Positions 5,007-22,106 of a stretch of DNA of 22,106 nucleotides are shown here, in pieces (the first letter of the stretch is position 1; the number at the start of each line of letters is the position of its first letter). The stretch lies in IMG/VR virus record IMGVR_UViG_3300047661_000106, positions 1 through 22,106 of that record; one strand, given 5' to 3'. The DNA comes from a virus. The translations under genes were made by a program, and so were the position numbers. A model generated the notes under the pieces. That model was not told where the DNA came from. It searched no databases and saw only the letters and a list, made by a program, of their open reading frames with translations.

Positions 5007-5082
5007 GGTAATTTCCACCCTAAAAAGGGGAAAATTGTGCCAAGAAGCCACTGGCTGCAAAAAAGTTTGGTTAGATCCTTTT

Positions 5083-5108
5083 TTCTCACAAACCTTGGTT
5101 CATGCGAC
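5083..5108 (+). promoter_or_regulatory. Left crossover site of the invertible segment (gix/hix-like)
   Basis: A 26-bp site centred on 5095-5096 has the dyad core AAACCTTGGTTC. Mu gix and Salmonella hix have the same AACC-NN-GGTT core. It lies in codons LTNLG of the silent fibre end. The mate is at 6842-6867 in inverted orientation. Confidence 0.8.
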
Positions 5109-5966: not shown

Positions 5967-6176
5967 TTATGACCCCGTGCTGGTTGTCTCAGTCGGCGCG
6001 GTAAATGCTTTGCTTGTGGCGTCATAGGTGTAGTCAATCCCGGCAACAGTGCCATTTGGGATGATAACGACAGTGCTGCCGGTGGGCGGCGTCCAGTCAT
6101 CGGCACTACCCGTAGGGCCGCTCCATACTATCGTGTTAATAACGGCACCGTTTTCAATGATTGCATAAATTGCCAT
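5967..6176 (-). CDS. Small fibre-associated protein paired with the active fibre
   Basis: 69 residues, MAIYAIIENGAVINTIVW at the start, then a Thr/Pro-rich middle and GIDYTYDATSKAFTAPTET at the end. The ATG at 6176 overlaps the stop of the fibre gene (TAATG), so it is coupled to fibre translation; an in-frame Met five codons upstream lies inside the fibre gene. It sits inside the invertible segment and is exchanged together with the fibre end. A fibre-assembly or tip role is inferred from position and from the similarity to phage fibre-assembly proteins. Its stop lies one base from that of the opposing silent gene. Confidence 0.72.
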   Translation of the reverse strand: MAIYAIIENGAVINTIVWSGPTGSADDWTPPTGSTVVIIPNGTVAGIDYTYDATSKAFTAPTETTSTGS

Positions 6177-8926: not shown

Positions 8927-9358
8927 TTACTCCCAGGCCCAGGAATATTTGAACGACGACGAATCTCCGTTCGGTTTAAAGAAAACAAGCTGCATATACA
9001 GCCGGTTCGGATAGACGATCTGGGTCGTAATCTGGATGCTGCTGACCACGCCGTCATCGATCAGCCACTGCAAGGCCTCGGTGGCATAATCTTCCGCTTT
9101 GCCCGCAATGGCCGCGGTCAACTTCTGGCGTTTCAACAGCCACAAGCGTGAACCTATTTGATAATCCGAGCCGGTATCACCCCACCAGCCTCGGCGATCA
9201 TTGCCGTCGTAATCATCGTCATTTCGGGCCAACCGATCGGTAAAGAGGCTGATCAAAATAGCCGTCTCCAAATCATTACCGCTGATTAAATCGCCCAACC
9301 CGGGCTGCCAATCGCCTAACGATTGCCCGCCATTCCAGATCGTTGTGATATCGGTCAT
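8927..9358 (-). CDS. Baseplate wedge protein, Mu gp46 / P2 W-like
   Basis: 143 aa. It resembles Mu gp46 (the gp25-like wedge component): DLISGNDLETAILISLFTDR, DRRGWWGDTGSDYQIGSRLW, LLKRQKLTAAIAGKAEDYA and EALQWLIDDGVVSSIQI. The RRGWWGD motif is diagnostic of this group. The start overlaps the stop of the spike gene (ATGA), so translation is probably coupled. It appears intact. Confidence 0.92.
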   Translation of the reverse strand: MTDITTIWNGGQSLGDWQPGLGDLISGNDLETAILISLFTDRLARNDDDYDGNDRRGWWGDTGSDYQIGSRLWLLKRQKLTAAIAGKAEDYATEALQWLIDDGVVSSIQITTQIVYPNRLYMQLVFFKPNGDSSSFKYSWAWE

Positions 9359-9954
9359 TGCAATTGCCCCCCAGGCGGTTGGCTAATCACCGTTGAACCG
9401 CCGGTTTGTACGTTTTGCACCTGGTGATTGTGCTGGTTATAAGCATCACGCAGATTTTTCAGCGTCGCGGTATTGCCGCCGTTGGCATTGTCGATAATGT
9501 CGCCGGACACCTTGAGCACCGGCGTATTCATCTGCACGCCGGTGGCGGCGTTGATGATCACGGTGGTCGCATTGTTAACCGTGACCGGTTGATTATTGGC
9601 ATTGATGACGATACCGGACTGCATCAGTTTTATGGTTTGTCCCCATTGTGAATACAGCAGGGTTTCGCCCGGATTTAACCCGGTAGGCCGATAACTCTGG
9701 TGATTTGAAGCAATGATCACCGCATTTGACCGATCCCCGCCTAAAAAGCCGATAATCACATCGGTACCGGCCGGTAGTCCTGAAGAAAAGCCGAATTCCG
9801 CCAACCGTACGGTATTGTCGCGGACTTCCATCGGCGTTTGGTATTGAATCATTTGCGTCACACCGGTATCCGTCATCGATGTCACCCGGCCAATGCCCAG
9901 CAACATTCTGACCTGCCGGTACAGCCGGGATAGCTGGCCGCTTACGTCTGTCAT
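9355..9954 (-). CDS. Baseplate spike protein (Mu gp45 / gpV-like)
   Basis: 199 aa. The central trimeric spike pierces the outer membrane. The N-terminal OB-fold region has RLYRQVRMLLGIGRVTS, RLAEFGFSSGLPAGTDVIIG and FLGGDRSNAVIIASNHQSYR. A beta-helical section follows (KLMQSGIVINANNQPVTVNN). The tip has an HxH motif at 175-177 (HNH), which in P2 gpV and phi92 spikes binds iron at the apex. The C-terminus ends TVISQPPGGQLQ. Its position between hub (gp44-like) and gp46 is conserved. It appears intact. Confidence 0.92.
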   Translation of the reverse strand: MTDVSGQLSRLYRQVRMLLGIGRVTSMTDTGVTQMIQYQTPMEVRDNTVRLAEFGFSSGLPAGTDVIIGFLGGDRSNAVIIASNHQSYRPTGLNPGETLLYSQWGQTIKLMQSGIVINANNQPVTVNNATTVIINAATGVQMNTPVLKVSGDIIDNANGGNTATLKNLRDAYNQHNHQVQNVQTGGSTVISQPPGGQLQ

Positions 9955-9971: not shown

Positions 9972-11021
9972 TTATTGATAAGACTGATAGGGTTTTACGA
10001 TAAATGACTCAGGCGGCATCAGGACCATGTGGGCGGTAGTGCCTTGATCATTTTTGAGAAAAGTGACCTCTGACAGCAACCAGAGCGCATTTTGCAGTCC
10101 GAAAACCGGAATGGTGATGGGTATCAAGGTATTAGGGGCCCACAATTGATTGGCGCTGTCGCGCCAGCTATCCACCGTCACCTGCAATTTTTTTGACCGG
10201 CCATAACGCCGGTTCATTTCCCAGTTGAGGCAATCCCGCGCTTTAGCTGGAACATTCATGGTGCTTTCCACTATCACGATATGATTACGCGTACGCATGG
10301 TTGCCGCTTCCGGATCGGTCGCGGCGGCCAGTATCATTGAGCCATAGCCGGAATTTGGCGGCAGTTGCGTCGCGGAATTCACCGATAATGACACGCCGGT
10401 ATAATGAGAAAAACGCTCATCCATGGATGATTCAAACTCTGCTTCTTGAATGTTGATCCCTTGCGCCACGCCGCTGGCCGCTTGCCGGGTGCCAACCCGG
10501 GTGAGATACAAACTGCCGTCCGGCAGGTCGTAATACAGCAATCCGGCCCAGCGGCAGACGCGGTCGATAATTTCCTGCGATGACTCGCCCCAATTGAGAG
10601 TGAATTGCGGAACGGTCGTCATTCCGGTGACATCTGAAGACACCGTAATCCCATAGGTCGCCGCCAGACGCTGAGCTAGTTGCAATGCCGTCACGTTGCT
10701 GATGACGCTGTTGGGCCATATGGCGGAACAATCCACCAGATCCTCGCATTGGCCACGCCCGCTGGTCTGCACTTCATGGCGTGAACTCGCAATCTTCGGC
10801 ATCCATCTATCGATATAACCGGTTAACACCACATCGGCGCCAATCTTGACCACACAGGGATCGCCAGGCGTCACCAATTGTTGTTCATCGCTGCCGGGAT
10901 AATAGTCCATGAGCGACAAATCAAAATCACTGGGCAATTTCTCGATACTGCGTGTCACGCGCAACTGGTCCCAGCCGGTGATGATTTTGTTGTTAATGGT
11001 AAGGGTCAGTTCGTCGCTCAT
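9972..11021 (-). CDS. Baseplate hub protein (Mu gp44 / gpP)
   Basis: 349 aa. It is a gp27/gpD-like hub that joins spike to tube. N-terminal LTINNKIITGWDQLRVTRSI and LPSDFDLSLMDYYPG, then LTGYIDRWMPKIASSRHEV, SGRGQCEDLVDCSA, and CRWAGLLYYDLPDGSLYLTR. The C-terminal domain has RSKKLQVTVDSWRDSANQLW and APNTLIPI followed by LWLLSEVTFLKNDQGTTAHM, the typical end of Mu gp44. It overlaps the gpN-like gene by ATGA. Full length. Confidence 0.92.
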   Translation of the reverse strand: MSDELTLTINNKIITGWDQLRVTRSIEKLPSDFDLSLMDYYPGSDEQQLVTPGDPCVVKIGADVVLTGYIDRWMPKIASSRHEVQTSGRGQCEDLVDCSAIWPNSVISNVTALQLAQRLAATYGITVSSDVTGMTTVPQFTLNWGESSQEIIDRVCRWAGLLYYDLPDGSLYLTRVGTRQAASGVAQGINIQEAEFESSMDERFSHYTGVSLSVNSATQLPPNSGYGSMILAAATDPEAATMRTRNHIVIVESTMNVPAKARDCLNWEMNRRYGRSKKLQVTVDSWRDSANQLWAPNTLIPITIPVFGLQNALWLLSEVTFLKNDQGTTAHMVLMPPESFIVKPYQSYQ

Positions 11022-12433
11022 GAGGACAGCGCCTTGAAGGTGGATGGCATAAATGCCGGGTGAACCGGATCGGCCATTTTGACTAGCGCTTCGGCGCGGG
11101 CGGCATCCTGATACAAACGATTGGCCAGATATAAAGCGGGCAGCGCAGTATTAAAACTGACGGTTTTTATGGGCGCTAAATTTGCGCCCGCGTTTTGCAA
11201 GGTGGCAACCACGGTTTCACGCAACACCTGCAATTCACCATAAACTTCGTCATAACCCGCATCGGCAATGGTCCTTGTCACAGTATCAATAACCGTGATC
11301 ACCCGTGTCAGCACGTTCATCGCATCATCGTAACTGGATGGCGTATATTGCGCGGCGACATTGGCCATGGCGCCGGCGGCCAGCGTAATAAAATAATATT
11401 GAGCGGCGGCGGTAATCTCACTGTCGCTGATATCAGGACGGTAGGTGGTATCGCTGAAACCGGCGAGCGTTTCCCATACCAGGATTAAATCGCTTTGGCT
11501 CGGTATACTGTTATTGATAGCACTCACCGCCGCCTGAACATTATCCGAAAAATCCGCCACAGAGGTCGAAGCCAGTAGCGTCACTGTCGCCGTATCAATC
11601 GTGGCGCGGTTTTCAACCGATGCAGCGATTTTCTGGGCTACCAGAGCCTCATAGTCCGTCGTGTCGGCCGTATTGCTGATGCTGCCATCAGTACTGGAGA
11701 CGCTACCGGAGACACTGCCGCCGACAGTGCCATCGTTATAGCGGCCATAACGGGTACTGCCAAAGGTGGATTTAAGCGTATTGCTTAAATTCGTCGCCTG
11801 GTCAGCAACATTGTCCACCATTGCGGTCCAAAACCCGCCATTGCCGTTCAGAATTCTAAGCGCCTGGGTGACGGTTCGTAGATCCCCGCTGACTTCAGAA
11901 ATAAACGTGGCGGCGGTTTTGGCCGCCAGCGAAAGCCAGGAGGTATTAACTGTTGAAACGGCGCTGACACTACTGGTAATGGCGAATACTTTCAGTCCCG
12001 ACTCAATGACAGTCAGGGTAAATTCAAATACGCGCCCGGCGATGCTCTCGCTTATTTGCAAGCCGCCATCGGGTATGCTGACCGTCAGCTCGCCGAGCGT
12101 TGGATGAACCAATGTTCCGGGGCCAAGGGTTTCACATGCCGCCACCAGCAAATCCCGTTGCGTCATCACATCCGAAGCGCTATACAGCAGGCTGTCCTGC
12201 ACGATAAAGCCGTGCAGCGTTAATTTTCGAACAGAACGGCCAATATCCTCAATCATCGCAGTATCACGATAGGGATATTCATGAACCGCCTGGCGCCGGC
12301 CAAAGGTTCCCTCGCCTGTTTCAACGGCAAAAGGCACGCCGCGAAATGAAGCCGGGTGGAGATGTTCAGACCAGTTCCAACTTTCGCTGGAACCGCCCAG
12401 GATAACGGATAATTTTTGACTTAATATGGACAT
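11018..12433 (-). CDS. DNA circularisation / tail protein gpN (Mu gp43)
   Basis: 471 aa. The N-terminal DNA_circ_N domain is clear: SWNWSEHLHPASFRGVPFAV, FGRRQAVHEYPYRDTAMIED and GRSVRKLTLHGFIVQDS, then ACETLGPGTLVHPTLGELTV and GRVFEFTLTVIESG. In Mu the protein is a tail and baseplate component despite its name. The rest is Ala/Ser/Thr-rich helix, with ARAEALVKMADPVHPAFMP at the end. The ATG at 12433 follows GGGGTAAACT. Upstream is a 161-bp gap that breaks the otherwise tight tail operon and holds an antitoxin-like remnant. Confidence 0.92.
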   Translation of the reverse strand: MSILSQKLSVILGGSSESWNWSEHLHPASFRGVPFAVETGEGTFGRRQAVHEYPYRDTAMIEDIGRSVRKLTLHGFIVQDSLLYSASDVMTQRDLLVAACETLGPGTLVHPTLGELTVSIPDGGLQISESIAGRVFEFTLTVIESGLKVFAITSSVSAVSTVNTSWLSLAAKTAATFISEVSGDLRTVTQALRILNGNGGFWTAMVDNVADQATNLSNTLKSTFGSTRYGRYNDGTVGGSVSGSVSSTDGSISNTADTTDYEALVAQKIAASVENRATIDTATVTLLASTSVADFSDNVQAAVSAINNSIPSQSDLILVWETLAGFSDTTYRPDISDSEITAAAQYYFITLAAGAMANVAAQYTPSSYDDAMNVLTRVITVIDTVTRTIADAGYDEVYGELQVLRETVVATLQNAGANLAPIKTVSFNTALPALYLANRLYQDAARAEALVKMADPVHPAFMPSTFKALSS

Positions 12434-12594: not shown

Positions 12595-14235
12595 TTAAGC
12601 ATAGGACATTGCGGCAGTCACTTTTGGACCGGTGGCTGTGATAACGTTTCGTTTACCTGTTTGGCTATTGATTAGGGTAAGTTCAATTTGCATTGAGTTA
12701 TTATTCATGGCAGTAATATCAGTTTTGCCCGTTGATGAGTCAGGAGAATTTAAAGCGCTTCCTAATTTTGGCGCGTTAATATTAGCTGGTTCCTTAATCG
12801 GAGTTGGCCTCTTGACAGATTTTTTTCTATGCGTAGAAGCCTCTTCTGATGTTTTTTTTGCATACCAAGGCCTATCACCAACTGGCCAATAATTTGTTAA
12901 TCTTTGCTTCGCTGCCTTCTCATAATTCAGTGTTTCTTGGCTTAATGGCTCAGCTTTCTTGTCATTCCTTTTTTTGTACCTAGAAGCCCCGGCATTATAA
13001 GCCGCGAAGGCCTGGGGGACATTACCATGGAAAGTTTTCAAATTATCTGAAAGTTTCTGTGCAGCGGCGTCCGCTGATTTATAAAAATCCATTCTATCTG
13101 CTTGAGTAATTAAATTATATTCCTTTCCTGAACTCGGCATAAATTGAAAAGGCCCTTCCGCTCCTGCGGGAGAACGCAGGTAGATTCCTCTAGACGACTC
13201 TAAAAGATAATCGAGATCCATGCTACCCGGCGGTAAAATATATTGTGTATCTAAATGCGCCAGATATTGAGCCCTACGAGCTTTTTCGTCTGATGGAATA
13301 TAGACTGCTCTTTGCTTTTCCCCACTAACCTTTTTTGTATTTTGTGCAAGCTGTACGACGTTATAGGACTCGTTCTGGATAGGTTTTTTTGCCTTCAATT
13401 CATCCAAACCTGCCTTTTTCGCTATATTCAAGTCGAACTGATTAACCACAGCCTGCTTAGACTGTGGCTGCTTCTCGTCAGGACCTCTTACATTCCGAGA
13501 AATTCTAGCCAGTCTGTCATGCTGACTACGATCTAACATATATGGAACTTCATTACTAGCTTGGTGAAGATTATTCGGCGTATCAAGAAATAAATTAGTT
13601 CCATTACCTAATATATTCTGTAAGACTGGCGGTAATGACATCAGCCGTTTAAGTATATTGTCTACCTGTGGATTATTACCCGAGCCAACCTTATTTTTGT
13701 TATGCAACATTATTACTTGAGATGGTAATAATCTGTTAAATTTATTTTCATAATCTTGGGTTGTATTGGAAATATGTTGAATGAGTGATGTTTTGATATT
13801 TTTAGTATCGCCGCGAGCAGCACTATTTTCCTTTATAGACTCGGTATTTTTTGCAACCGCCTCCGTAGGCTTATCCATATTTTTACCATTGCTTATTATG
13901 CGCTCTCCTTTTTCCGCAAAATTCACCACCCCCTTTTTCACCCGTTCAATGACGTTGGCCAAACCGTTTAACCCCACGTTCAGTTCGGTCAGTGTATTCA
14001 GTGGTGGGATAGATTTATCGATAGATTGCTTATCGCCCTGGGCATTTTTCGCTACCCCCTGTGATTTTTCACCTAACGCCGCAAAACCGGTTATCGATGA
14101 CTGTCCAACCAGTTGCAACCCAATTCGGATCTGATCCAAAGAGATTTGCAGGTTTTGTATCGCTGCTTGTATTCGCTGGAGCGAAGCAATTACCTGATCA
14201 TTCTCTTCCAGCTCAAAATCAAATGACTTAGTCAC
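12595..14235 (-). CDS. Tape measure protein with lytic transglycosylase domain
   Basis: 546 aa; sets tail length and here can also cut peptidoglycan. The N-terminal 110 residues look like a Mu-type tape measure (LEENDQVIASLQRIQAAIQN, then helical repeats). Residues about 325-425 form a goose-type/SLT lytic transglycosylase fold: LLESSRGIYLRSPAGAEGPF with the likely catalytic E346, QFMPSS, and AFAAYNAGASRYKK. The end (MQIELTLINSQTGKRNVITA) is again tape-measure-like. No clear transmembrane segment is seen, which is unusual. The start is GTG at 14235 after AGGGGG; it overlaps the end of the frameshifted chaperone ORF. Codons in about 12650-13900 are distinctly AT-rich against the neighbours, so the middle is probably acquired. 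Confidence 0.82.
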   Translation of the reverse strand: MTKSFDFELEENDQVIASLQRIQAAIQNLQISLDQIRIGLQLVGQSSITGFAALGEKSQGVAKNAQGDKQSIDKSIPPLNTLTELNVGLNGLANVIERVKKGVVNFAEKGERIISNGKNMDKPTEAVAKNTESIKENSAARGDTKNIKTSLIQHISNTTQDYENKFNRLLPSQVIMLHNKNKVGSGNNPQVDNILKRLMSLPPVLQNILGNGTNLFLDTPNNLHQASNEVPYMLDRSQHDRLARISRNVRGPDEKQPQSKQAVVNQFDLNIAKKAGLDELKAKKPIQNESYNVVQLAQNTKKVSGEKQRAVYIPSDEKARRAQYLAHLDTQYILPPGSMDLDYLLESSRGIYLRSPAGAEGPFQFMPSSGKEYNLITQADRMDFYKSADAAAQKLSDNLKTFHGNVPQAFAAYNAGASRYKKRNDKKAEPLSQETLNYEKAAKQRLTNYWPVGDRPWYAKKTSEEASTHRKKSVKRPTPIKEPANINAPKLGSALNSPDSSTGKTDITAMNNNSMQIELTLINSQTGKRNVITATGPKVTAAMSYA

Positions 14236-14652
14236 TTAGCCCCCTTATCCGGTTGATTCGCTCCGCCTGTTCTGCCCACCAGCATAATTCGCTCCATGAT
14301 AGGGACCAGGTTTCCCTGGGCCCCCAGCGATAATAAAATGCCACGTCGGCAATCAGTTCCCGCCATTGTCCGTTGTCGGGGAGTAGTTCAAAAAACCCAG
14401 CAAATACTCCTCACAGGATTTGTAGTCGGTAAAGGCCATCTTTTTAATCACTTCACGCGGCACTGCGGACAACAGGGCAATTAATAACCCCATGGCGCTC
14501 AATGCCCCCGCTTTGGCCTGTTCATCATAAAACTGCTGAACTTGGAGTAATGTTGGTTCGCTGAGATCAATGGCCTCCCAGGTCTGCTTGCCGCTGTTGT
14601 CCGAAATCGGTTTCACCAGCGGGAAGGTTTTACTTCTTTCTTGTTCCGCCAT
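14228..14652 (-). CDS. Tail assembly chaperone, -1 frameshift extended form (GpE'/gp41-42 type)
   Basis: The 99-residue chaperone (14353-14652) has a slippery run near its end: GGGTTTT and TTTTTTG (plus-strand 14389-14398), both in the X-XXY-YYZ phase for -1 slippage after codons CTG-GGT-TTT-TTG. Slipping back one base continues as FELLPDNGQWRELIADVAFY, then YRWGPRETWSLSWSELCWWA and EQAERINRIRGLSD, ending at 14228. ELIADVAFYYRWGP and the WAEQAERI end match the GpE-type extension of tail chaperones (family form IADIAVIFHWPPSEL...). The product would have 141 aa. Contractile-tail phages make this longer form at low rate to recruit tube protein and tape measure. The extension fills the apparent gap before the tape measure exactly. 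Confidence 0.85.
14353..14652 (-). CDS. Tail assembly chaperone, short form (Mu gp41-like)
   Basis: 99 aa. MAEQERSKTFPLVKPI followed by WEAIDLSEPTLLQVQQFYDE and MGLLIALLSAVPREVIKKMA match the Mu gp41/TAC family, whose members coat the tape measure during tail assembly and are absent from the finished tail. It follows the tube gene by one base and is the upstream partner in the -1 frameshift described for 14228-14652. The normal stop lies 14 codons after the slippery site. Confidence 0.9.
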   Translation of the reverse strand: MAEQERSKTFPLVKPISDNSGKQTWEAIDLSEPTLLQVQQFYDEQAKAGALSAMGLLIALLSAVPREVIKKMAFTDYKSCEEYLLGFLNYSPTTDNGGN

Positions 14653-14653
14653 A

Positions 14654-15022
14654 TCAGTTCTCCGTTACCGAACCGCCTTCCCAGCGGATATCGAGCGTCG
14701 CGTCAGTGGAATTCACTTCCTGGGTATTCACCGACCACATGCCCGACCCGATGATGGTTTTGCCGTTGGCCAACTCGGCGACGACGGTGACATTGGTCTG
14801 ATTGTTGAAGTCCGCCACGGTCGTACCGCCGCTATCGCGCAACTGACAGGCGATATACGGCGCATTCGGCGTTTCCCGATAACCATGTACCCCATCCATG
14901 CCAGTGAGCGTTTCCCGTTTAGTAATGGAAGGGCTGTATTTGAATTGCCCCGCCACCATCACAGTGATGCCGTCGCAGGTCACATATGCGGTACCGGCGA
15001 GACGATTAGTTGTATCACCCAT
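14654..15022 (-). CDS. Tail tube protein (Mu gpM / gp40)
   Basis: 122 aa; forms the inner rigid tube through the sheath. MGDTTNRLAGTAYVTCDGIT, VAGQFKYSPSITKRETLTGM, DGVHGYRETPNAPYIACQLR and GSGMWSVNTQEVNSTDATLD, ending IRWEGGSV, are characteristic of the Mu-type tube family. It lies directly after the sheath and before the chaperone, the fixed order in Mu-like tails. It appears intact. Confidence 0.94.
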   Translation of the reverse strand: MGDTTNRLAGTAYVTCDGITVMVAGQFKYSPSITKRETLTGMDGVHGYRETPNAPYIACQLRDSGGTTVADFNNQTNVTVVAELANGKTIIGSGMWSVNTQEVNSTDATLDIRWEGGSVTEN

Positions 15023-15037
15023 ATAAATGATTTCCTT

Positions 15038-16528
15038 TTAAGCCGCCGGTTGCAGGCGGAACTGATTAAGCAACGCAAAGATGCGCAACTGGTTGATTAA
15101 CGTGCCATCCCAAAGAACGTCCACCCGGTTAGGATTGGTTGCGTTCTGTTCAACGACCAGCCCGGAGGCGAAGGCGGTGGAGTCTTGTACATAGCCGCCA
15201 TTTTCCAGGGCGGTGTATTGGGCAATAAGCTCGGCGCGAATGGTATTCGGCGTCACAATCGCCGATCCGGCGGCAAACCGGGTGCCGTCAGCGGCCAACT
15301 TCATCCGGGCAAACTTTGAGGTAATCTGTGTGCGGATATAGCGGGTGACGTACATCAGCAAAAACAGGGTTTCAACTTGCAGATAACTGTCATCGGCATT
15401 GCCGTAAGCGTTGGTTTGGTAAGTGGTGATGACATTCTCGATTTGCACCGAGCCGTCATCGGCCACGGTAACGGTGGAAATCCCGCTATACAGCAGGTTA
15501 TTGCGTTCGGTCAGGGTAAAGCGCGATGCCAACGGCGGTGCCAGGACGCCGCTTACCGTCAACGTTTGCAATGGACGGCCGGGGTCATTCCGCAGACTGC
15601 CGGCAATCGCGCCATAAACGGCCGCCGACCAGATATATGCCGGTGTCGGCGAGTCATAAATACCCACCAGCGAGGCATGCTGATCGTTCCGCGCCTCGCC
15701 TGCGGCGGTCAGTTGACCAAGGGTACCGGCCAACACGCCCAGAGAGTGGCCGTAAAGCTGCGAGGCATAACTCCAGCGACCGGTGCCGTCCGACAAAAAG
15801 GCCTTAACCGCATCCAGGGAAGTCGTATCCGTGTAGGGGTTGACGATAAAATCGAATGTCTGGTCACCCAGATTGGCCAGAGCGTCAGTGAGGTCTGGCG
15901 CGCCGGCGCCGGCGCTCATCGGTGAGATAGTCAGAGCTAACCCGGCCGGTGTTTGCTCACCACCCGCGCTGCCTAAATAGTTCAACCGCAGATCGATATC
16001 ATTGCCATGCGCGCCTTTGTTTTTCGCCGTCAATGTCACCGCGCCGGCAACGGCGACAGCGGTCACCGGCAGCGAGGATGTTCCATTGATCGCAGCCGCC
16101 AGGGCGGTGGCGATATCAGCGATAGTATCGGTAGCCACCACGGATATTTGGACGCGCGTGCCGGCGACATACAATGAAATAACGCCAGTGTCAGTGGCGG
16201 CGCTGGTGATGGTCAACGTGCCTTCCGCTGCGACCATCGCACTCCCATCCACCAGCGGCAGTAGATAGATTTCCGCTGAGGAATCATTCGCGAGATAAGC
16301 CGTCATCAGGTTATGCAACATAGAGCCGGCGCCAAACACCCCGGCCACCGTTGATGCGGAGGATTCGATGATTGGCGTATTTTCGCTGATAGGCGTAGCC
16401 ACCGTCATCTGGCCGAGGATTAATGTTCGCTGGGTGGCGGTAGCCGTATTGGCTTGTGAATTATCGAACTCGGCAAAAAACAGCGGTGTGCGCAAATTGC
16501 CGGGAATATTACTGAACGAGATTGTCAT
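15038..16528 (-). CDS. Contractile tail sheath protein (Mu gpL / gp39)
   Basis: 496 aa. N-terminal ISFSNIPGNLRTPLFFAEFD and QRTLILGQM, insertion domain with ISLYVAGTRVQISVVATDTI through TLTAKNKGAHGNDIDLRLNY, core GDQTFDFIVNPYTDTTSLDA and SLVGIYDSPTPAYIWSAAVY. The C-terminal part has LTERNNLLYSGISTVTV and LQVETLFLLMYVTRYIRTQI, then IRAELIAQYTALENGGYVQD, all typical of Mu-type sheath. It shows that the particle is contractile. The start overlaps the stop of the gp38-like gene (TAATG). No break seen. Confidence 0.95.
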   Translation of the reverse strand: MTISFSNIPGNLRTPLFFAEFDNSQANTATATQRTLILGQMTVATPISENTPIIESSASTVAGVFGAGSMLHNLMTAYLANDSSAEIYLLPLVDGSAMVAAEGTLTITSAATDTGVISLYVAGTRVQISVVATDTIADIATALAAAINGTSSLPVTAVAVAGAVTLTAKNKGAHGNDIDLRLNYLGSAGGEQTPAGLALTISPMSAGAGAPDLTDALANLGDQTFDFIVNPYTDTTSLDAVKAFLSDGTGRWSYASQLYGHSLGVLAGTLGQLTAAGEARNDQHASLVGIYDSPTPAYIWSAAVYGAIAGSLRNDPGRPLQTLTVSGVLAPPLASRFTLTERNNLLYSGISTVTVADDGSVQIENVITTYQTNAYGNADDSYLQVETLFLLMYVTRYIRTQITSKFARMKLAADGTRFAAGSAIVTPNTIRAELIAQYTALENGGYVQDSTAFASGLVVEQNATNPNRVDVLWDGTLINQLRIFALLNQFRLQPAA

Positions 16529-16749
16529 TATTTAGTGTCCTCCGCTGCCGTATCGGTTGCGGTCGTCTGAGTGGTTTTCACAGTATTCGGGACTGCGGCC
16601 GGTGTCGCGGCGGCCGATAAAGACACATCCGCGTCACGCAGTCGCCTGCGCCAAAAGGTATTGTCCGGCACTTCGGCGCCGGAAATGGGCAATAGAATGC
16701 CCTTCACCGGGTCGCGCACCGCGCGCCCGGCATTGGGTTTCACAAACAT
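16528..16749 (-). CDS. Mu gp38-like small tail protein (DUF2635)
   Basis: 73 aa. MFVKPNAGRAVRDPVKGILL and PISGAEVPDNTFWRRRLRDA, then DV, match the short DUF2635 group that sits just before the sheath gene in Mu-like phages. Its exact job is unknown. The last 30 residues are Ala/Thr-rich (TVKTTQTTATDTAAEDTK) and go beyond the conserved part. Translationally coupled to the sheath gene. Confidence 0.9.
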   Translation of the reverse strand: MFVKPNAGRAVRDPVKGILLPISGAEVPDNTFWRRRLRDADVSLSAAATPAAVPNTVKTTQTTATDTAAEDTK

Positions 16750-16762: not shown

Positions 16763-17359
16763 TTATTGAGGCAGATTGATAGTGACCACGGGTTCAGTGG
16801 TGTTGGCAGGCATAACGATAGTGGTATCGATACCGGCAAGAGGAACGGACGCTACGGGATAAAAATCTTCCGGTCCCTGGTAATATTCAATATCCATTTC
16901 CATAAAAAGTTGGACGATTTGCCCTGCGCTGCAGGTGCTGAGATCCATCCGTGAACGAATGGATTTAAATTGCTGTATTTGCCGAGTCAGATCATAACTA
17001 TTGATCACCGCCTGCTCGGCCTGTTCACGGATTGCTTCTAAAGCAGGTTGTGCCGTGATGGCGCCTTCATTGACTGTACTCGTCGCGCCGGTGGTGCTGG
17101 TTGTGGATGAGGCACTGGTCGTGGATGTAGTGCCGGCCGGTTGTTGCATCTGAACAGCAATTAATACCGTCGTCGTCGTCGTGAATTGTGGCGCATTTGG
17201 GCCGAGAGAGTGTTTTTCGTCATAGATGGTTTGAACCAATATGGCGGGATAGGTATTGGCGAAAGTAGACCAACTCAGGGGCGAAAAAACATTATTCCCG
17301 GCATTTGTTTTACCCATAAGCGCGGTAACCACTAATTCTATCAACGTGATCGCATTCAT
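16763..17359 (-). CDS. Tail terminator / Mu gp37-position protein with Ser/Thr-rich insert
   Basis: 198 aa. By position (between connector and gp38/sheath) it should be the tail-end or terminator protein (Mu gp37, DUF1834-like). Recognisable parts are MNAITLIELVVTALMGKTNA, WSTFANTYPAILVQTIYDEK, and LEAIREQAEQAVINSYDLTR, then VQLFMEMDIEYYQGPEDFYP. Residues about 76-96 are a low-complexity run of Thr, Ser, Ala and Gly that looks like an inserted linker between two beta-rich halves. The start overlaps the connector stop by four bases. Family assignment is mainly from position. Confidence 0.65.
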   Translation of the reverse strand: MNAITLIELVVTALMGKTNAGNNVFSPLSWSTFANTYPAILVQTIYDEKHSLGPNAPQFTTTTTVLIAVQMQQPAGTTSTTSASSTTSTTGATSTVNEGAITAQPALEAIREQAEQAVINSYDLTRQIQQFKSIRSRMDLSTCSAGQIVQLFMEMDIEYYQGPEDFYPVASVPLAGIDTTIVMPANTTEPVVTINLPQ

Positions 17360-17688
17360 AGCGTGCTTACCTCATTCAAAATAAGAATACTTCCACCATG
17401 GATATCTGGCTGGACATGATTGATCACAAATAGTGTGTGTAACCTATAGATAAATAGCCGGTCGCCATTATTGGGCTGGGTCCTGAATGCCAAGGCGCGC
17501 GCCCTCAAAACAGGATGGTGGGGGCTGATTACAGGGCCTTCATCAATAAATTGAGTTCGCTCGATATTACCCCGATCAAATATGCCGGTAATATCGTATG
17601 CCGCACCCATGGCAGGCCTGTAATTTACCGGCTCCCCAAAAATGTCCTGCAGCTGAGCCAGCAAAGTGATATCCCAATCCATGCCCAT
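17356..17688 (-). CDS. Head-tail connector protein (lambda FII-like)
   Basis: 110 aa. It resembles small head-tail joining proteins of the FII/Gifsy-2 group: acidic N-terminus with DWDITLLAQLQDIFGEP, then GAAYDITGIFDRGN, HPVLRARALAFRTQ, NNGDRLFIYRLHTLFVINHV and QPDIHGGSILIL. In an intact phage it joins the capsid portal complex to the tail. Here it is the only head-side gene left, since no portal or capsid gene is seen upstream. The ATG at 17688 follows GAGGGTCATC. It is coupled to the next gene by overlap. Confidence 0.72.
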   Translation of the reverse strand: MGMDWDITLLAQLQDIFGEPVNYRPAMGAAYDITGIFDRGNIERTQFIDEGPVISPHHPVLRARALAFRTQPNNGDRLFIYRLHTLFVINHVQPDIHGGSILILNEVSTL

Positions 17689-17735
17689 GATGACCCTCGA
17701 ATTGCAATCGGCGCTTAGACGTGCCGTTAGCCTAA

Positions 17736-18065
17736 TTAACGATATTTTTCTTTGAGCGCGACGAGATCGGCTTCAGCCTCTGCGCCAAAAACTTCAATGC
17801 CGTGCTCAACGAAAGCGACGAATTTATCGAATTCCGCTTTGGCCATGTCCAAAGGAGACAGCGTAGCCGGTACCACCGGGATGGGGACTGGCTCAATTGA
17901 AGGCGCGGCGGTGACTGAGGGTTGGATTGCTGATGCGGTAATATCGCTCACATTTATTTCCTTTATTGTTTCGATTTTCGGTTCAGTATCAATGGTCGCC
18001 CCGGTAGTAACTTGGGCAGGTTTGATATAGATGGCATTGAGCCATGCTAAAAAATGGTTAATCAT
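17736..18065 (-). CDS. Unknown phage protein between lysis and connector genes
   Basis: 109 aa, not recognised as a named family. The N-terminus MINHFLAWLNAIYIKP is followed by a Thr/Ile/Pro-rich middle (SIEPVPIPVVPATLSPLDMA) and an acidic helical end (KFVAFVEHGIEVFGAEAEAD followed by LVALKEKYR). That end resembles C-termini of small unassigned phage proteins, but I cannot give a function. It overlaps the spanin stop (ATGA), so it is co-translated with the lysis genes. It stands where terminase and capsid genes would begin in a lambdoid phage, 47 bp before the connector, so a deletion joint may lie on either side of it. Confidence 0.75.
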   Translation of the reverse strand: MINHFLAWLNAIYIKPAQVTTGATIDTEPKIETIKEINVSDITASAIQPSVTAAPSIEPVPIPVVPATLSPLDMAKAEFDKFVAFVEHGIEVFGAEAEADLVALKEKYR

Positions 18066-18586
18066 TTTTGCGCCTCGATTTGCCGAATGCTCGCCAAATG
18101 GTTATTCGCCGTATCAATCGTAGCCAATAAAGGCATTATCCATAACACTGCTTGGCAATATGTCAGGGCGCCGGAGGCAGTGGCGTTAATAGGGGCGCTG
18201 TGAGTTCCGAGGGTATTGGCGTCGAGGGCGCTGGCACGTAAACGGTTCGCGTAGTTGTACAGGCCGTCAGAAACAGCGGTAGGAACATCAAGAGCGCAGG
18301 TCGGCTCTTTTTTAAGAAGGGTGCGATACTCAATTTGTTTTACCTCGACAGTAGCGGCATTCTGCTTGTCGTTTTGCAGCGCTGCGGCAGTAATATCGTT
18401 AAATTTTTGAAAGTCGAAAGACTGTTTAGCTATTTCTGTGGTTTGCAACGCAGTATCGCTTTGCATTTGCGACAAAGTCACAGCGGACGCTGCGGTTTTT
18501 CCATAATAATGAAAGGCGACCCACATCAGCACTGAAATAAGCAAAGCGAGAAGTAACGTCACCATAATTGCGAATTTGTTAATCAT
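18062..18586 (-). CDS. Inner-membrane spanin (Rz-like)
   Basis: 174 aa. N-terminal membrane anchor INKFAIMVTLLLALLISVLM (about 2-24) with a short cytoplasmic end, then a long polar helical periplasmic part rich in Gln/Ala/Asp (about 35-85), and the conserved-looking KKEPTCALDVPTAVSDGLYN followed by YANRLRASALD. It would fuse inner and outer membranes with the lipoprotein encoded inside it. The ATG at 18586 overlaps the endolysin stop (ATGA); an upstream in-frame Met lies within the endolysin gene. The embedded Rz1 frame makes the spanin call strong. Confidence 0.85.
   Translation of the reverse strand: MINKFAIMVTLLLALLISVLMWVAFHYYGKTAASAVTLSQMQSDTALQTTEIAKQSFDFQKFNDITAAALQNDKQNAATVEVKQIEYRTLLKKEPTCALDVPTAVSDGLYNYANRLRASALDANTLGTHSAPINATASGALTYCQAVLWIMPLLATIDTANNHLASIRQIEAQK
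18163..18333 (-). CDS. Outer-membrane spanin lipoprotein (Rz1-like), embedded
   Basis: 56 aa in another frame inside the Rz-like gene, too short for usual ORF cut-offs. It begins at TTG (18333) after GAGG, 9 bases upstream: (M)SIAPFLKKSRPALLMFLPLF, then LTAC, a lipobox with Cys25. The mature part is proline-rich and 31 residues long: TTTRTVYVPAPSTPIPSELT, then APLLTPLPPAP. The basic-hydrophobic-lipobox start and Pro-rich mature chain are the signature of Rz1 o-spanins, which span the periplasm from the outer membrane to meet Rz. It is fully contained within Rz, as in lambda. The start codon is the least certain part. Confidence 0.85.
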   Translation of the reverse strand: MSIAPFLKKSRPALLMFLPLFLTACTTTRTVYVPAPSTPIPSELTAPLLTPLPPAP

Positions 18587-19080
18587 GTTTGCTGACCCAT
18601 AAAACACAGTTGCCTATCGATTTCTCGACGATTAATCAATCCCTTGTTGCGTTGGCCATTAACCCTCACCCACTGACGCAGATCGTTACATGCCTGGGAT
18701 ATATTGCCGGAATTAATATGGCGCAATAAAGATGAATTTTTGTAGGCGGTGATTCCTACATTAAAAGCAAATGAATAGAGTGCGGCTCGGGTGTAATTGT
18801 CCATAGGCACTTTTACAGTGGAATCGACTATTTTCTTAACCGGCGCTAAATCATGCTCGAGTAATGCGCCGCATTCTTCATCGGAATAATATTTCCCCGG
18901 GATCACATCTTTGCCGGTATGACCATCACAGACGGTCCATACTCCCGCCACATCGCGATAGGCAGTATGTTCAGTTCCTTCCACCCCATAGGGTCCGGGA
19001 AGGTAGGCAACCGTGATAGCCATTGCCCCGCCCGCCGCGGCCGATACTATTTTATTCCTCAGTTGCGGTGACATTGCCAT
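18583..19080 (-). CDS. SAR endolysin (phage 21 R-like lysozyme, GH24)
   Basis: 165 aa. Muramidase with the catalytic triad E34-(8)-D43-(5)-T49 in VEGTEHTAYRDVAGVWT, followed by VCDGHTGKDVIPGKYY. ALYSFAFNVGITAYKNSSLL and GLINRREIDRQLC are the family's C-terminal landmarks. The weakly hydrophobic, Gly/Ala-rich N-terminus (KIVSAAAGGAMAITVAYL) is a signal-anchor-release segment: the enzyme is exported tethered and inactive, and is freed when the membrane depolarises. The ATG at 19080 (AGGA 5 bases upstream) is preferred; a second ATG at 19074 aligns with the R21 start. It overlaps the holin gene by 29 bp. Confidence 0.92.
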   Translation of the reverse strand: MAMSPQLRNKIVSAAAGGAMAITVAYLPGPYGVEGTEHTAYRDVAGVWTVCDGHTGKDVIPGKYYSDEECGALLEHDLAPVKKIVDSTVKVPMDNYTRAALYSFAFNVGITAYKNSSLLRHINSGNISQACNDLRQWVRVNGQRNKGLINRREIDRQLCFMGQQT

Positions 19081-19411
19081 TTCCGTCCTGCTCAGTCTCG
19101 ACTAAGACCCGATTAACTTTCTGCACAATTTCACCAGCCTGACTGACATCATGCATTGGCGAGCCATTTAAAAAATCGACGATCGCTTTAGTCCGTTGCT
19201 GATCAAATATCAGACGTTCTTGCGCCAGTTTCCGATTAAGTGTTTCCGTCTTACGTTTATCGACATATCCGAGCAATGAAATAATCGCGCCAATTACTGC
19301 CATAAATATATAAATCAATTCCATCGTCGACAGTCCCATCAGGCTAGAAAGCAACATGGCTAACGCCCCGCCGTGCATTGCGATATCTGATTTGTCATTC
19401 ATCAGTTTCAT
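19052..19411 (-). CDS. Holin or pinholin with dual start
   Basis: 119 aa, first gene of the lysis cassette. Two hydrophobic segments (about 13-31, GGALAMLLSSLMGLSTM; and 32-49, ELIYIFMAVIGAIISLLGY) are followed by a charged cytoplasmic tail (VDKRKTETLNRKLAQERLIF). The start reads MKLMNDKSD: two Met codons with a Lys between, as in phage 21 S (MKSMDK) and lambda S (MKMPEK), where the longer form is the inhibitor. The first ATG (19411) has GAGG six bases upstream; the second is at 19402. With a SAR endolysin next, a pinholin is more likely than a large-hole holin. The family was inferred from topology and position. Confidence 0.78.
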   Translation of the reverse strand: MKLMNDKSDIAMHGGALAMLLSSLMGLSTMELIYIFMAVIGAIISLLGYVDKRKTETLNRKLAQERLIFDQQRTKAIVDFLNGSPMHDVSQAGEIVQKVNRVLVETEQDGNGNVTATEE

Positions 19412-19708
19412 ACTCCACCTCGGAAATGCAGGTGTATTGTGATAGAGGGTTCGTCTCCACGTCGTAGGCGCGTGTAAAGGATATTGTGAGCGTCAGATTT
19501 GACGAGGAGACGAAAAAGAAAAAGGCCGCCTGAAGGCAGCCTTTATAATTTTTTTCGATTGTTACGCCGTAATTTTCTCTCTAGGTTAAAACTTTTGCTG
19601 ACCGGTAGCAGCGTATTTTATCAACCAGGAGAAAGTGCGCGTTATTTATTGGCGATGGCCATGAAACGCGGTATTTATGCATTCAAGTATTGTACGTTGT
19701 AACCAGTG
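19412..19708. other. Q-to-lysis intergenic region (late control region)
   Basis: About 300 bp without a supported gene between the Q-like antiterminator and the holin. It holds the terminator at 19510-19544. In lambdoid phages the late promoter pR', the Q-binding site and terminator tR' sit here in this order. I could not pick a convincing -35/-10 pair for pR' by eye. Confidence 0.6.
19510..19544 (-). terminator. Late terminator (tR'-like), candidate Q target
   Basis: On the minus strand AAAGGCTGCC-TTCA-GGCGGCCTTT forms a 10-bp stem with one U:G pair, followed by TTTTTCTTTTT. It blocks late transcription just before the lysis genes, where Q antitermination is expected to act. Confidence 0.85.
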
Positions 19709-20149
19709 TTACCACATTACCTCTAATTTTTCGGGCCGAGATAGTGTTTTTTTCGGTTTTTCTAAAATAATTGTTTTTTGCACATAAGGGTCCATTTCCA
19801 GGCTCGCATCAGTCATGGCCAAACAGCCCTCAATGAAACCTTCAGCGACTTGCAACTGTCGACGAATTTCTCTTTCACTGCATTTCCTACGCCTGGCTAT
19901 AGCGGATTTTGATTGCCCGTAAACATAATGCATGAGTATCAGATTGAGTTCCTCAGGTTGCCTAACCTTCCGTAAGCACCCAACAGCGGTATCGATGATC
20001 AATCCGTCATCATCGCAACATGACTCGAATTTGCTGGCCGATCTGGGTAATAACCCTTTAAAACCGGCAGCAATATGCGAGTAATCAAGACCGGAATTAT
20101 CCCTCGCCCAGATTCCCCAACGTTCAAGCACTAATTGAATATTACGCAT
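19709..20149 (-). CDS. Antitermination protein Q (phage 82 Q-type)
   Basis: 146 aa. It loads on RNA polymerase at the late promoter so that transcripts pass the downstream terminator and reach lysis and tail genes. MRNIQLVLERWGIWARDNSG, then LDYSHIAAGFKGLLP and CCDDDGLIIDTAVGCL match phage 82-type Q. The C-terminal helix-turn-helix-like part is SKSAIARRRKCSEREIRRQL followed by QVAEGFIEGCL. I chose the ATG at 20149 (GGGGGAAACAG upstream); the longer frame runs into the replication gene. It overlaps the initiator stop by 8 bp, so nothing is left of a lambda-type P, ren or nin region. Confidence 0.88.
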   Translation of the reverse strand: MRNIQLVLERWGIWARDNSGLDYSHIAAGFKGLLPRSASKFESCCDDDGLIIDTAVGCLRKVRQPEELNLILMHYVYGQSKSAIARRRKCSEREIRRQLQVAEGFIEGCLAMTDASLEMDPYVQKTIILEKPKKTLSRPEKLEVMW

Positions 20150-21146
20150 CTGTTTCCCCCCTTGATCGCTGACTATGCATGACCCAGATTTTGTTCCAAG
20201 CCGTTTTCCCAAAACTATCCCGCATGGTTTTAACGCCTGCGCTATCCGCCTCTTTACGGACCAGGCGCTCAAAGTCAGTCTTCGGACCATTCTCGCCAGG
20301 CGCCGCCAATCGCAGATAACGCTTGAAGGCGTCTTCCCGTTCAGAGCAATCGGATGCGCTGGTTATCGGGGAACGAAATTTGCGGCCTTCATTATGCCAA
20401 GCCTGGGCAGCTAGCAGATTGCCGCTGAATTTAGACGTTCTGAACATCGTTTCCGGATTGAGAAACTTAGCCCACTCGGTACCCAACCAACGCGTCACAA
20501 GGTAATCAACAACCAATTTCAATTCATCAACGGTATTACCCTCAGTAAACCGAGCGCTAATATTCTGTAGCGTGGATTTTGCTTGGGTATAACGGGCGCC
20601 GGTGAGTTTGTTCAAGTGTTCGAGTACGATGACGGCCGGAGCTGTCATCGCCTGTTCTTTGGGCCGTATGACATCAAGGGATTGCGCCGTAGCCGGTTGC
20701 CCGAAGGTGTTTATATCTGAGGGATCAGTTATTGATCTTACTGACGGATCCCCATCAGATCTTGACGGGTCAAAAGAAGTGTTTTCCCTCGATTTTGAAG
20801 CAGCAAATTTTGAGGCGTCGGATTCTGAGTGTTCAAACGCCATTTGCTGCGGGGCGGCGGCGGTAAATAATTTCTCTAGATTCAGCTGATAGAGGTTTGA
20901 AGCGTTGCGATTACCGTATCTACGCTGCCTGCGGGTCAGCCAGCCTTGTTTTTCAAGTTTGGCGATGGCTGTTCGCACGGTGCTGGAGCCCGCGCCAATC
21001 TGGCGAGCAATGGTTTCGACGCTGGGCCAACTTATGCCGTGATCATTGGAAAAATCAGCCAAGCGAGCCATAATTGTCACTTCAGATAATTTCAATCCCG
21101 CTGATGCGCAGCCGTCCCAGACCCAGCTGGTAAGCTTAGTGCTCAT
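20142..21146 (-). CDS. Phage replication initiator (HTH plus Phg_2220_C domain)
   Basis: 334 aa. The N-terminal winged HTH (about 10-95) has LKLSEVTIMARLADFSNDHG, SWPSVETIARQIGAGSSTVR and KLEKQGWLTRRQRRYGNRNA, like lambda O-type or DnaD-like phage initiators. The middle is Ser/Asp-rich (FDPSRSDGDPSVRSITDPSD). The C-terminal domain VLEHLNKLTGARYTQAK through FLNPETMFRTSKFSGNLLAA matches the phage replication C-terminal family Phg_2220_C. The ATG at 21146 follows AAGGGGTTGTC; a longer frame with 17 more residues is less likely. It is the first large gene of the early operon. Iteron-like repeats lie in its middle, as lambda ori does in O. No helicase loader follows. Confidence 0.85.
   Translation of the reverse strand: MSTKLTSWVWDGCASAGLKLSEVTIMARLADFSNDHGISWPSVETIARQIGAGSSTVRTAIAKLEKQGWLTRRQRRYGNRNASNLYQLNLEKLFTAAAPQQMAFEHSESDASKFAASKSRENTSFDPSRSDGDPSVRSITDPSDINTFGQPATAQSLDVIRPKEQAMTAPAVIVLEHLNKLTGARYTQAKSTLQNISARFTEGNTVDELKLVVDYLVTRWLGTEWAKFLNPETMFRTSKFSGNLLAAQAWHNEGRKFRSPITSASDCSEREDAFKRYLRLAAPGENGPKTDFERLVRKEADSAGVKTMRDSFGKTAWNKIWVMHSQRSRGETDA
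20718..20771 (-). repeat. Iteron-like repeats within the initiator gene (candidate origin)
   Basis: Three direct copies of the plus-strand 9-mer TGA(C/G)GG(A/G)TC occur at 20718-20726, 20742-20750 and 20763-20771 (starts 24 and 21 bp apart). They code for the Asp-Pro-Ser repeats of the linker, so they may be only coding repeats. Confidence 0.45.
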
Positions 21147-21231
21147 GACAACCCCTTGCGATTTCCCTGAACCACTCGGTGCCATCGGCATAGCCATTGG
21201 GCGACGTAGTTTTATTATTCGCTTGTCTCAC
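21136..21231 (-). CDS. Short leader ORF upstream of the initiator (31 codons)
   Basis: GTG at 21231 with the strong site GGGGGAAGATT upstream gives 31 residues, beginning (M)RQANNKTTSPNGYADGTEW and ending CHEH. It overlaps the start of the initiator gene by 11 bp in another frame, so it may couple translation. I do not recognise the product. The good ribosome site is the main support. Confidence 0.4.
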   Translation of the reverse strand: MRQANNKTTSPNGYADGTEWFREIARGCHEH

Positions 21232-21428: not shown

Positions 21429-22106
21429 ATGAAAACTAATGATGAAATCAGGCGTGAAAACGCTAGAAAATTGCGTGATAGCTCAGGAGGCAACACCTCC
21501 TTCGCTGCGCTGATTGATCGTGAACCGACCCAGATCAGCCGCATTATTGGTAAAAATCCCACAAAGAAAATCGGCGACGATTTAGCTCGGTATATGGAAA
21601 AGTGTTTTTCTCTTCCTGCTGGTTGGTTAGATCAAGAACATCAAAAAACGAACATTGCGCCAATCCAAAATGTTATTGATACAGACCAAAAAATACGATT
21701 AGTACCCGTTATATCGTGGGTTCAGGCGGGGGCATGGACTGAAATCGGCTACTCCGAGGTAGATGTGAGTTTATTAGAAAATTACCCATGCCCGGTTCCT
21801 TGCGGGCCATTGACTTACATATTGAGGGTCATAGGCGATTCAATGATCACGGAATACAATCCAGGCGATCTTATCTTCGTCGATCCTGAGATTGCACCTG
21901 TACATGGGGATGATGTCGTTGCTCTTCTGCTGGATTCAGGCGAGACAACGTTCAAACGGTTTATTGAGGATGGAGGGAGCAGATTTTTGAAGGCGCTTAA
22001 TCCAAACTGGCCCGAGCCCTATTTGAAAATAAACGGCAATTGTTCCATCATCGGAACAGTCATTTTTTCTGGTAAATCAAGGCACTTCCGTATTTCCACT
22101 TATTAA
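21429..22106 (+). CDS. Phage repressor, HTH plus S24 self-cleaving domain
   Basis: 225 aa, ending at the window edge with its stop. It is the CI-like switch that holds the element silent until RecA-promoted self-cleavage after DNA damage. The N-terminal HTH covers about 8-45 (FAALIDREPTQISRIIG). The S24 domain has the Ala100-Gly101 cleavage site in VISWVQAGAW, the nucleophile Ser138 in RVIGDSM and Lys176 in ETTFKRF; the pattern YNPGDLIFVDP is diagnostic. The catalytic residues are all present, so it should be SOS-inducible. The Shine-Dalgarno before the ATG at 21429 is weak. No Cro-like gene faces it; the next gene on the other side is the initiator operon. Confidence 0.92.
   Translation: MKTNDEIRRENARKLRDSSGGNTSFAALIDREPTQISRIIGKNPTKKIGDDLARYMEKCFSLPAGWLDQEHQKTNIAPIQNVIDTDQKIRLVPVISWVQAGAWTEIGYSEVDVSLLENYPCPVPCGPLTYILRVIGDSMITEYNPGDLIFVDPEIAPVHGDDVVALLLDSGETTFKRFIEDGGSRFLKALNPNWPEPYLKINGNCSIIGTVIFSGKSRHFRISTY

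What the first reader, a model, noticed from the sequence alone, without database searches (positions are those of the whole stretch)
16763..19411. Contractile tail with control and lysis genes but no head module: possible tailocin
Seen: lysis genes run without a gap into one unknown gene, a small head-tail connector and then the full sheath-tube-baseplate-fibre set. Every tail gene looks intact. No terminase, portal, protease or capsid gene lies between Rz and the connector, which is where lambdoid phages with Mu-type tails (SfV layout) keep them. Known: R-type tailocins are contractile tails released by lysis genes, and carotovoricin Er combines such a tail with an invertible fibre switch. 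Inference: this element may make a host-killing particle rather than a virion. The rest of the early region (initiator, connector) would be vestigial.
Basis: partly seen in the sequence, partly recalled or inferred. Interest (0 to 1): 0.78.

Follow-up and report, generated by a model that had tools for sequence, protein, structure and literature searches.

The report
Headless contractile tail: independently evolved tailocin
A bacterium from an undescribed genus of gut-bacteria relatives (Enterobacterales) carries a virus remnant that kept its complete spring-loaded tail, lysis and control genes but lost its head and its integrase; it most likely makes a bacteria-killing particle, and comparison with headed viruses of the same host genus shows that it arose separately from the similar Yersinia weapon enterocoliticin.

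Summary
Holin, endolysin, Rz/Rz1, a 109-aa unknown and a head-closure connector run straight into a complete Mu/SfV-type contractile tail with no terminase, portal, protease or capsid. In headed relatives, including one in the window's own host genus, those genes lie exactly there. The tailocin reading is supported, though no particle or killing is shown. Evidence: intact ORFs in the window and in five near-identical metagenome contigs; a 47-nt joint that keeps the connector's start codon; an integrase cut to about 10 codons at dusA; a tape measure of 546 aa, shorter than in all headed relatives with an unbroken gene (578-710 aa) but within the headless range (434-546); fast divergence mainly in head-facing proteins; fibre tips swapped at an invertase-type site. 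A related prophage at dusA in a sister species has decayed instead. A tree of eight tail proteins puts the window inside headed phages of its own genus and rejects one origin with the Yersinia enterocoliticin-type loci (AU p = 3e-6). Corrections: the invertase is truncated, the 16763-17359 protein is a tail terminator by fold, and initiator, Q and repressor are intact. Sequence right of the repressor is unseen. New member of a known kind.

The parts
1..4387 (.). Host flank: dnaB, quinone oxidoreductase, pspG-like and dusA (3335-4387, -)
   Evidence: ORFs; 81-84% nt identity over dnaB-qor to five of six genomes of one Enterobacterales genus, the sixth 83% over dnaB and 77% over qor
4287..4309 (+). 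dusA 5' attachment-type sequence; a 38-nt copy (38/38 within G405, 35/38 to the window) marks the far end of the dusA prophage remnant in sister genome G405
4472..4500 (+). Remnant of the integrase gene: about the first 10 codons (MHYYNIEKKL; intact gene in G405 starts MAYYSIEKRL)
4539..5060 (-). Truncated DNA invertase: resolvase N-terminal domain only
   Evidence: PF00239 2-109 of 145; PHROG 125 20-119 of 254
5084..5143 (+). Crossover arm 1 of the fibre segment (60 nt, 83% complementary to arm 2; contains AAACCTTGGTT)
5037..5765 (+). Alternative fibre tip B (glycine-rich), in silent orientation
   Evidence: PHROG 863 E 4e-35, PF21722
5750..5965 (+). Small gene paired with tip B
   Evidence: ORF; no Pfam hit
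5967..6191 (-). Small gene paired with tip A
   Evidence: ORF; no Pfam hit
6176..7138 (-). Tail fibre, glycine-rich tip A
   Evidence: PHROG 863 E 3e-42
6807..6866 (+). Crossover arm 2; strain L002 departs from the window at 6851, inside this arm
7188..7784 (-). Baseplate wedge (Mu gp48-like)
   Evidence: PHROG 203 E 2e-69
7781..8923 (-). Baseplate wedge (Mu gp47-like)
   Evidence: PHROG 6 E 3e-66
8927..9358 (-). Baseplate wedge (Mu gp46-like)
   Evidence: PHROG 180 E 3e-47
9355..9954 (-). Baseplate spike, Mu Gp45
   Evidence: PF06890 E 5e-14
9972..11021 (-). Baseplate hub (Mu gp44/P-like)
   Evidence: PHROG 177 E 2e-118
11018..12433 (-). DNA circularisation/hub protein (Mu gp43-like)
   Evidence: PF07157 E 2e-29
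12595..14235 (-). Tape measure, 546 aa, transglycosylase domain, shortened in the middle
   Evidence: PF01464 E 1e-11; lengths and alignment
14353..14652 (-). Tail assembly chaperone (Mu gp41-like)
   Evidence: PHROG 166 E 4e-30
14654..15022 (-). Tail tube
   Evidence: PHROG 185 E 6e-34
15038..16528 (-). Tail sheath
   Evidence: PHROG 165 E 6e-194; solved sheath 9khy E 4e-102
16528..16749 (-). DUF2635-type small tail protein (Mu gp38-like)
   Evidence: PHROG 208; annotation of the homologue in BZS1
16763..17359 (-). Tail terminator (cap)
   Evidence: AlphaFold2 mean pLDDT 83; Z 13.9 to a phage stopper-terminator complex, 13.8 to lambda gpU, 11.6 to Mu, 11.4 to pyocin R2 collar
17356..17688 (-). 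Head-closure/attachment protein, retained, fast-diverging
   Evidence: PF05354 E 5e-10; divergence
17689..17735 (-). 47-nt joint where the head module would lie
   Evidence: no similarity to the flanks of the head module in headed relatives
17736..18065 (-). 109-aa protein of unknown function; its homologue in headed contig L014 lies about 0.85 kb before the terminase genes
   Evidence: PHROG 22600 E 3e-26
18062..18607 (-). Rz spanin; Rz1 nested at 18163-18333
   Evidence: PHROG 214 E 4e-45; ORF
18583..19080 (-). Endolysin (lysozyme)
   Evidence: PHROG 7 E 9e-52
19052..19411 (-). Holin
   Evidence: PHROG 1350 E 1e-10
19521..19544 (-). Strong intrinsic-terminator-like hairpin between Q and lysis genes (tR'-like, inferred)
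   Evidence: 10-pair stem plus T run; the scan as a whole was at background (7 found, 6.1 expected)
19709..20290 (-). Antiterminator Q
   Evidence: PF06530 E 3e-45
20142..21197 (-). Replication initiator (O/DnaD-like)
   Evidence: PHROG 428 E 9e-55; PF09524
21341..21412 (.). Two operator-like palindromes: ATAATGTATCTATTAGATACATTAT (21341-21365) and TTGTACCTTCACGGTACAA (21394-21412)
   Evidence: 22 hits against 2.2 in shuffles
21429..22106 (+). CI-type repressor with S24 autoprotease domain
   Evidence: PF00717 E 1e-22; PHROG 4 E 6e-43

Best explanation
The element is an R-type tailocin formed in place from an SfV/BZS1-type prophage at dusA. Shown by sequence: the head module is absent from all that is seen, the integrase is a stub of about 10 codons, the tape measure is shortened in the middle, and sheath, tube, baseplate, fibre, terminator, lysis, Q and repressor genes are intact. 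Inferred: DNA damage triggers self-cleavage of the CI-type repressor; this frees the promoter in front of the initiator and Q genes; Q lets RNA polymerase pass the hairpin at 19544-19521; lysis and tail genes are expressed, tails assemble to the length set by the short tape measure and are capped by the terminator, and holin, endolysin and Rz/Rz1 burst the cell. Released tails bind related bacteria through the fibre tip, contract and kill by piercing the envelope. Fibre tips are exchanged between strains by recombination at the invertase-type crossover site; in this strain the invertase is truncated, so tip A is probably fixed.
For: No head genes by tblastn, while headed relatives have them between lysis and connector. 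All tail ORFs intact here and, over the parts covered, in L002, L003, L004, L177 and L298 (99.4-99.9% identity); 38 synonymous against 14 nonsynonymous differences to L002 over 14.3 kb, about 0.115 per site. Window nested in headed phages of its host genus, support 99-100; single origin with Yersinia headless loci rejected, AU p 3e-6. Tape measure 546 aa; headless 434-546, unbroken headed 578-710, central deletion. Connector and terminator more diverged (58 and 64% to headed sisters, which share 71 and 74% among themselves), sheath, tube and most baseplate proteins not. Terminator fold. Integrase stub. Different fibre tips on near-identical backbones, parting inside the crossover arm. Same tail/Q/repressor logic as enterocoliticin, a proven killing particle.
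Against: No particle, killing or induction data. The window stops at the repressor's stop codon; genes beyond are unseen. Connector and replication initiator are retained although a tailocin should not need them; the enterocoliticin-type loci lack both. Differences between strains cluster in gpP, gp46 and the fibre, so the synonymous excess may partly be imported by recombination. Head loss also occurs in broken prophages of this group (L088/L175), so absence of heads alone proves little. The tape-measure comparison rests on about two independent events, with L015 (headless, 599 aa) as an exception.
Confidence: 0.72

Rival explanations
1. It is a defective prophage that recently lost its head module and integrase by ordinary deletion and is decaying; the intact tail genes reflect too little time for damage.
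For: The integrase and invertase 3' parts are lost; head deletions occur in other prophages of this group (L015; L088/L175 lack the capsid); a related dusA prophage remnant in sister genome G405 has lost head, sheath and tube and carries an insertion element in the tape measure.
Against: The joint keeps the connector's start codon and leaves 47 nt; no tail or lysis gene is broken here or in five near-identical contigs; the tape measure is shortened in frame; mainly head-facing proteins diverge fast; fibre tips are replaced by other intact tips.
Confidence: 0.18
2. The element is a complete phage whose head genes lie to the right of the window, beyond the repressor.
For: The far attachment site is not in the window, so the element may continue to the right for an unknown distance.
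Against: In headed relatives, G403 of the same host genus included, the head lies between lysis and connector. The window and the independent contig L177 both stop exactly at the repressor's stop codon, as gene-based prophage trimming would do; capsid, portal and terminase genes are strong viral markers and should have been kept. The integrase is a stub.
Confidence: 0.06
3. The element makes tails that can be joined to heads supplied by a co-resident headed prophage, giving that phage another host range.
For: The connector is intact and 99-100% identical between strains; headed relatives live in the same genus.
Against: Connector and terminator have diverged faster than other tail genes from headed sisters; the tape measure length differs; no benefit to an element without integrase is evident.
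Confidence: 0.04

Closest known systems
Enterocoliticin of Yersinia enterocolitica (PMC13030884) and enterocoliticin-type loci in other Yersinia (L042-L046, L048, L049, L051, L053-L058, L060, L071, L090-L094, L101)
   Same: Mu-type contractile tail genes in the same order, CI repressor and Q upstream, no head genes, short tape measure, resolvase-type recombinase beside the fibres in L057, L060 and L101
   Different: Separate origin in the tree; Yersinia loci lack connector and initiator homologues; the window's site is dusA
Headed SfV/BZS1-type prophage of the same host genus (G403, C1 about 4513-4545 kb)
   Same: 79% identity over eight tail proteins; order initiator, Q, lysis, tail, fibre
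   Different: Has terminase, portal, protease, decoration protein and capsid between lysis and connector; tape measure 638 aa; lies elsewhere than dusA
Serratia phage vB_SspM_BZS1 and Citrobacter phage phiNP
   Same: Tail module and connector in the same order
   Different: Complete phages with heads; sheath 68% identical
Carotovoricin of Pectobacterium (PMC13195805)
   Same: Chromosomal contractile tailocin with exchangeable fibre tips, as described there
   Different: Fixed between tolC and ybiB in that genus; its sequence was not compared here
dusA-specific genomic islands and prophages (PMC4482086)
   Same: Insertion at the 5' end of dusA, with an integrase start beside it
   Different: Integrase reduced to a stub, so no mobility expected

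Membership tests
R-type tailocin | Contractile tail genes complete and open (sheath, tube, tape measure, baseplate, fibre, terminator) | tested here: met
R-type tailocin | No capsid, portal, protease or terminase genes in the element | tested here: inconclusive
   Absent from all 17.6 kb seen; the part right of the repressor is unseen
R-type tailocin | Own lysis cassette | tested here: met
   holin, endolysin, Rz/Rz1
R-type tailocin | Damage-inducible control | not testable with these tools
   S24 repressor, operator-like palindromes, Q and a hairpin before the lysis genes suggest it
R-type tailocin | Headless particle that kills related bacteria | not testable with these tools
   needs induction, electron microscopy and killing tests
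Enterocoliticin lineage (by descent) | One clade with the Yersinia headless loci | tested here: not met
   AU test p 3e-6 against; window inside headed phages of its own genus
Intact SfV-type phage | Head module between lysis and connector, functional integrase | tested here: not met
   head module absent there, integrase stub
Active Gin/Hin-type fibre switch | Inverted crossover sites around alternative tips | tested here: met
   60-nt arms, 83% complementary
Active Gin/Hin-type fibre switch | Full-length invertase | tested here: not met
   C-terminal part missing

The most novel reading that the evidence does not exclude
A young tailocin caught between phage and fixed bacterial weapon: it still carries the head-closure connector and the replication initiator, and, compared with its headed sisters and with the separately evolved Yersinia tailocin, it suggests a repeatable route (clean head loss, integrase loss, tape-measure shortening, relaxed constraint mainly on head-facing proteins).
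Probability: 0.45. Interest if true: 0.62.

Novelty: new member of a known kind. Interest (0 to 1): 0.5.

Why it matters
How working tailocins arise from prophages is mostly inferred from old, fixed examples. Here a headless element has headed close relatives in its own host genus, a decayed dusA prophage in a sister species and an independently formed counterpart in Yersinia. That makes the order and repeatability of the steps testable, in particular whether a shorter tape measure is a general mark of tails that no longer carry DNA.

Tried and rejected
Megablast of the element against phage records: no match; blastn of the stretch against plasmids and phages gave only short pieces. Tail terminator and connector have no convincing sequence match in the PDB; the terminator was settled by fold. 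The 47-nt joint shows no clear remnant of the genes that flank the head module in headed phages. Scans with the repressor, initiator, 109-aa protein, tape measure and connector found no contig that extends past the repressor. PADLOC: nothing relevant. Considered and rejected: descent from enterocoliticin (AU test); a working invertible switch (truncated invertase). Coding differences to L003, L004 and L177 are too few to judge selection one by one.
Full report
What the window is. The window is a 22,106-base virus record. Its left 4.4 kb is host chromosome (dnaB, quinone oxidoreductase, pspG-like, dusA). dnaB-qor is 81-84% identical in DNA to five of the six held genomes of one Enterobacterales genus; in the sixth (G002) dnaB is 83% and qor 77% identical. 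Two of the six are metagenome-assembled Enterobacterales records (bin_27, bin_314); the others are unnamed in these tools. The rest is a prophage-derived element that runs off the right end at the repressor's stop codon.

Observation. From right to left: CI-type repressor (S24 domain), replication initiator, Q, holin, endolysin, Rz/Rz1, an unknown 109-aa protein, a head-closure connector, a 198-aa protein, and the whole Mu/SfV-type tail to the fibres. No head gene is present by tblastn with the head genes of Serratia phage BZS1 and Citrobacter phage phiNP. The 198-aa protein was modelled (mean pLDDT 83) and has the tail-terminator fold: Z 13.9 to a phage stopper-terminator complex, 13.8 to lambda gpU, 11.6 to Mu, 11.4 to the pyocin R2 collar. 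So the tail has its cap.

Is head absence unusual? Among relatives at 55% sheath identity or more with 8.5 kb upstream available, head genes sit between lysis and connector in almost all. Exceptions are the Yersinia loci of enterocoliticin type; L015 (Rz/Rz1 then connector, no head); L035, where only capsid and decoration matched; and a Limnobaculum prophage without capsid (L088/L175). The prophage of the same host genus in G403 has the full head set there. In headed contig L014 a homologue of the 109-aa protein lies about 0.85 kb before the terminase genes, so both edges of the missing module can be placed. In the window 47 nt separate that protein's stop codon from the connector's start codon, and the connector begins ATGGGCATGGATTGG as against ATGGGCATTGATTGG in G403.

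Tree. Eight tail proteins (2,336 columns) place the window with G403 and G001, support 100, near G404 and G002 of the same genus; the Yersinia headless loci form another clade inside Yersinia headed phages. Forcing all headless rows together costs 679 log-likelihood units, AU p = 3.3e-6. Headlessness therefore arose at least twice in this tail lineage, three times if L015 counts. Limits: the trees are quick searches without the mixture model, and G001's contig starts just upstream of its connector, so its head was not seen next to the tail, although a capsid gene of this type lies on another of its contigs.

Not simply decay. (1) Every tail and lysis ORF is open in the window and in the parts covered by L002, L003, L004, L177 and L298. 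Against L002, 38 differences are synonymous and 14 not, with 3,214 synonymous and 10,292 nonsynonymous sites, a ratio near 0.115. Most differences cluster in gpP, gp46 and the fibre, so recombination may contribute. (2) The tape measure is 546 aa; headless loci have 434-546, headed ones 578-710 where the gene is unbroken; L009 and L028 have split frames. Against L086 and L174 about 70 residues are missing in the middle while both ends align. L015, headless but inside the headed clade, has 599. (3) Identity to headed sisters of the genus: connector 58% and terminator 64%, while the sisters share 71% and 74% among themselves; for sheath, tube, chaperone, DNA_circ and the baseplate wedges the window is as close as they are to each other; gpP is lower (73 against 79) and gp45 about equal. 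This is four genomes, so a pattern rather than a test. (4) In G405 a related prophage at dusA has an intact integrase but has lost the stretch between endolysin and tape measure (head, sheath, tube), and an insertion element splits the tape measure. That is what decay at this site looks like.

Grounding. In G405 the integrase begins beside dusA with MAYYSIEKRL. The window keeps the same stretch and then MHYYNIEKKL before the similarity ends. The neighbouring invertase gene has only its N-terminal domain. The simplest reading is a deletion that removed the integrase body and the invertase's C-terminal part. dusA is a known integration site (PMC4482086).

Fibre tips. Two inverted 60-nt arms (5084-5143, 6807-6866; 83% complementary) bracket two alternative glycine-rich tips. 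The arms contain AAACCTTGGTT, which resembles Gin/Hin crossover sites (from memory, not tested). Contig L002, 99.6% identical over 14.3 kb, departs from the window at 6851, inside an arm, and continues with a collar-type tip and a tail-fibre assembly protein, then a mutator-type transposase. L298 has a backbone like L002's (99.7%) with the window's tip A. Tip replacement on a near-constant backbone parallels the fibre exchange reported for carotovoricin (PMC13195805).

Control. The repressor has an S24 domain. Two clear palindromes lie between repressor and initiator, and a strong hairpin with a T run lies between Q and the lysis genes (the scan as a whole is at background level, so this site is singled out by stem quality and position). 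Induction by DNA damage and Q-dependent late expression are inferred.

Right-hand limit. The window and the independent contig L177 both end exactly at the repressor's stop codon, and the window's left end is exactly dnaB's stop codon. This fits prophage trimming at gene borders rather than a contig end, and suggests that the next gene was not recognised as viral. It is indirect evidence. The second attachment repeat is not in the window.

Comparison with known systems. Enterocoliticin (PMC13030884) is a proven headless killing particle with the same gene logic; the window works like it but is not its descendant. It would be a new member of R-type tailocins if particles are shown. Distinctive features are the retained connector and initiator and the closeness of headed relatives in the same genus.

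Noticed in passing
L015 6682-9262: A second headless layout in a contig that groups with headed Yersinia phages: endolysin and Rz/Rz1 followed by the connector, tape measure 599 aa. Possibly a recent, separate head loss.
   Followed up: partly
L293 4716-15124 and L171 (G405): Decayed dusA prophage in a sister genome: intact integrase and acyltransferase gene beside dusA, 38-nt dusA repeat at the far end, toxin-antitoxin-like genes, holin and endolysin, then a tape measure split by an insertion element.
   Followed up: yes
L259 1-1190: Mutator-family transposase in two pieces (105 and 291 aa) beyond the fibre region of contig L002, on the side where the window has its invertase.
   Followed up: no
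window 20142-20290: Initiator and Q genes overlap by 149 nt, whereas in the G403 prophage they lie about 6 kb apart; the genes between have gone.
   Followed up: partly
L088 / L175 (Limnobaculum): Prophage with terminase and part of the portal directly followed by the tail terminator; capsid and connector missing.
   Followed up: no
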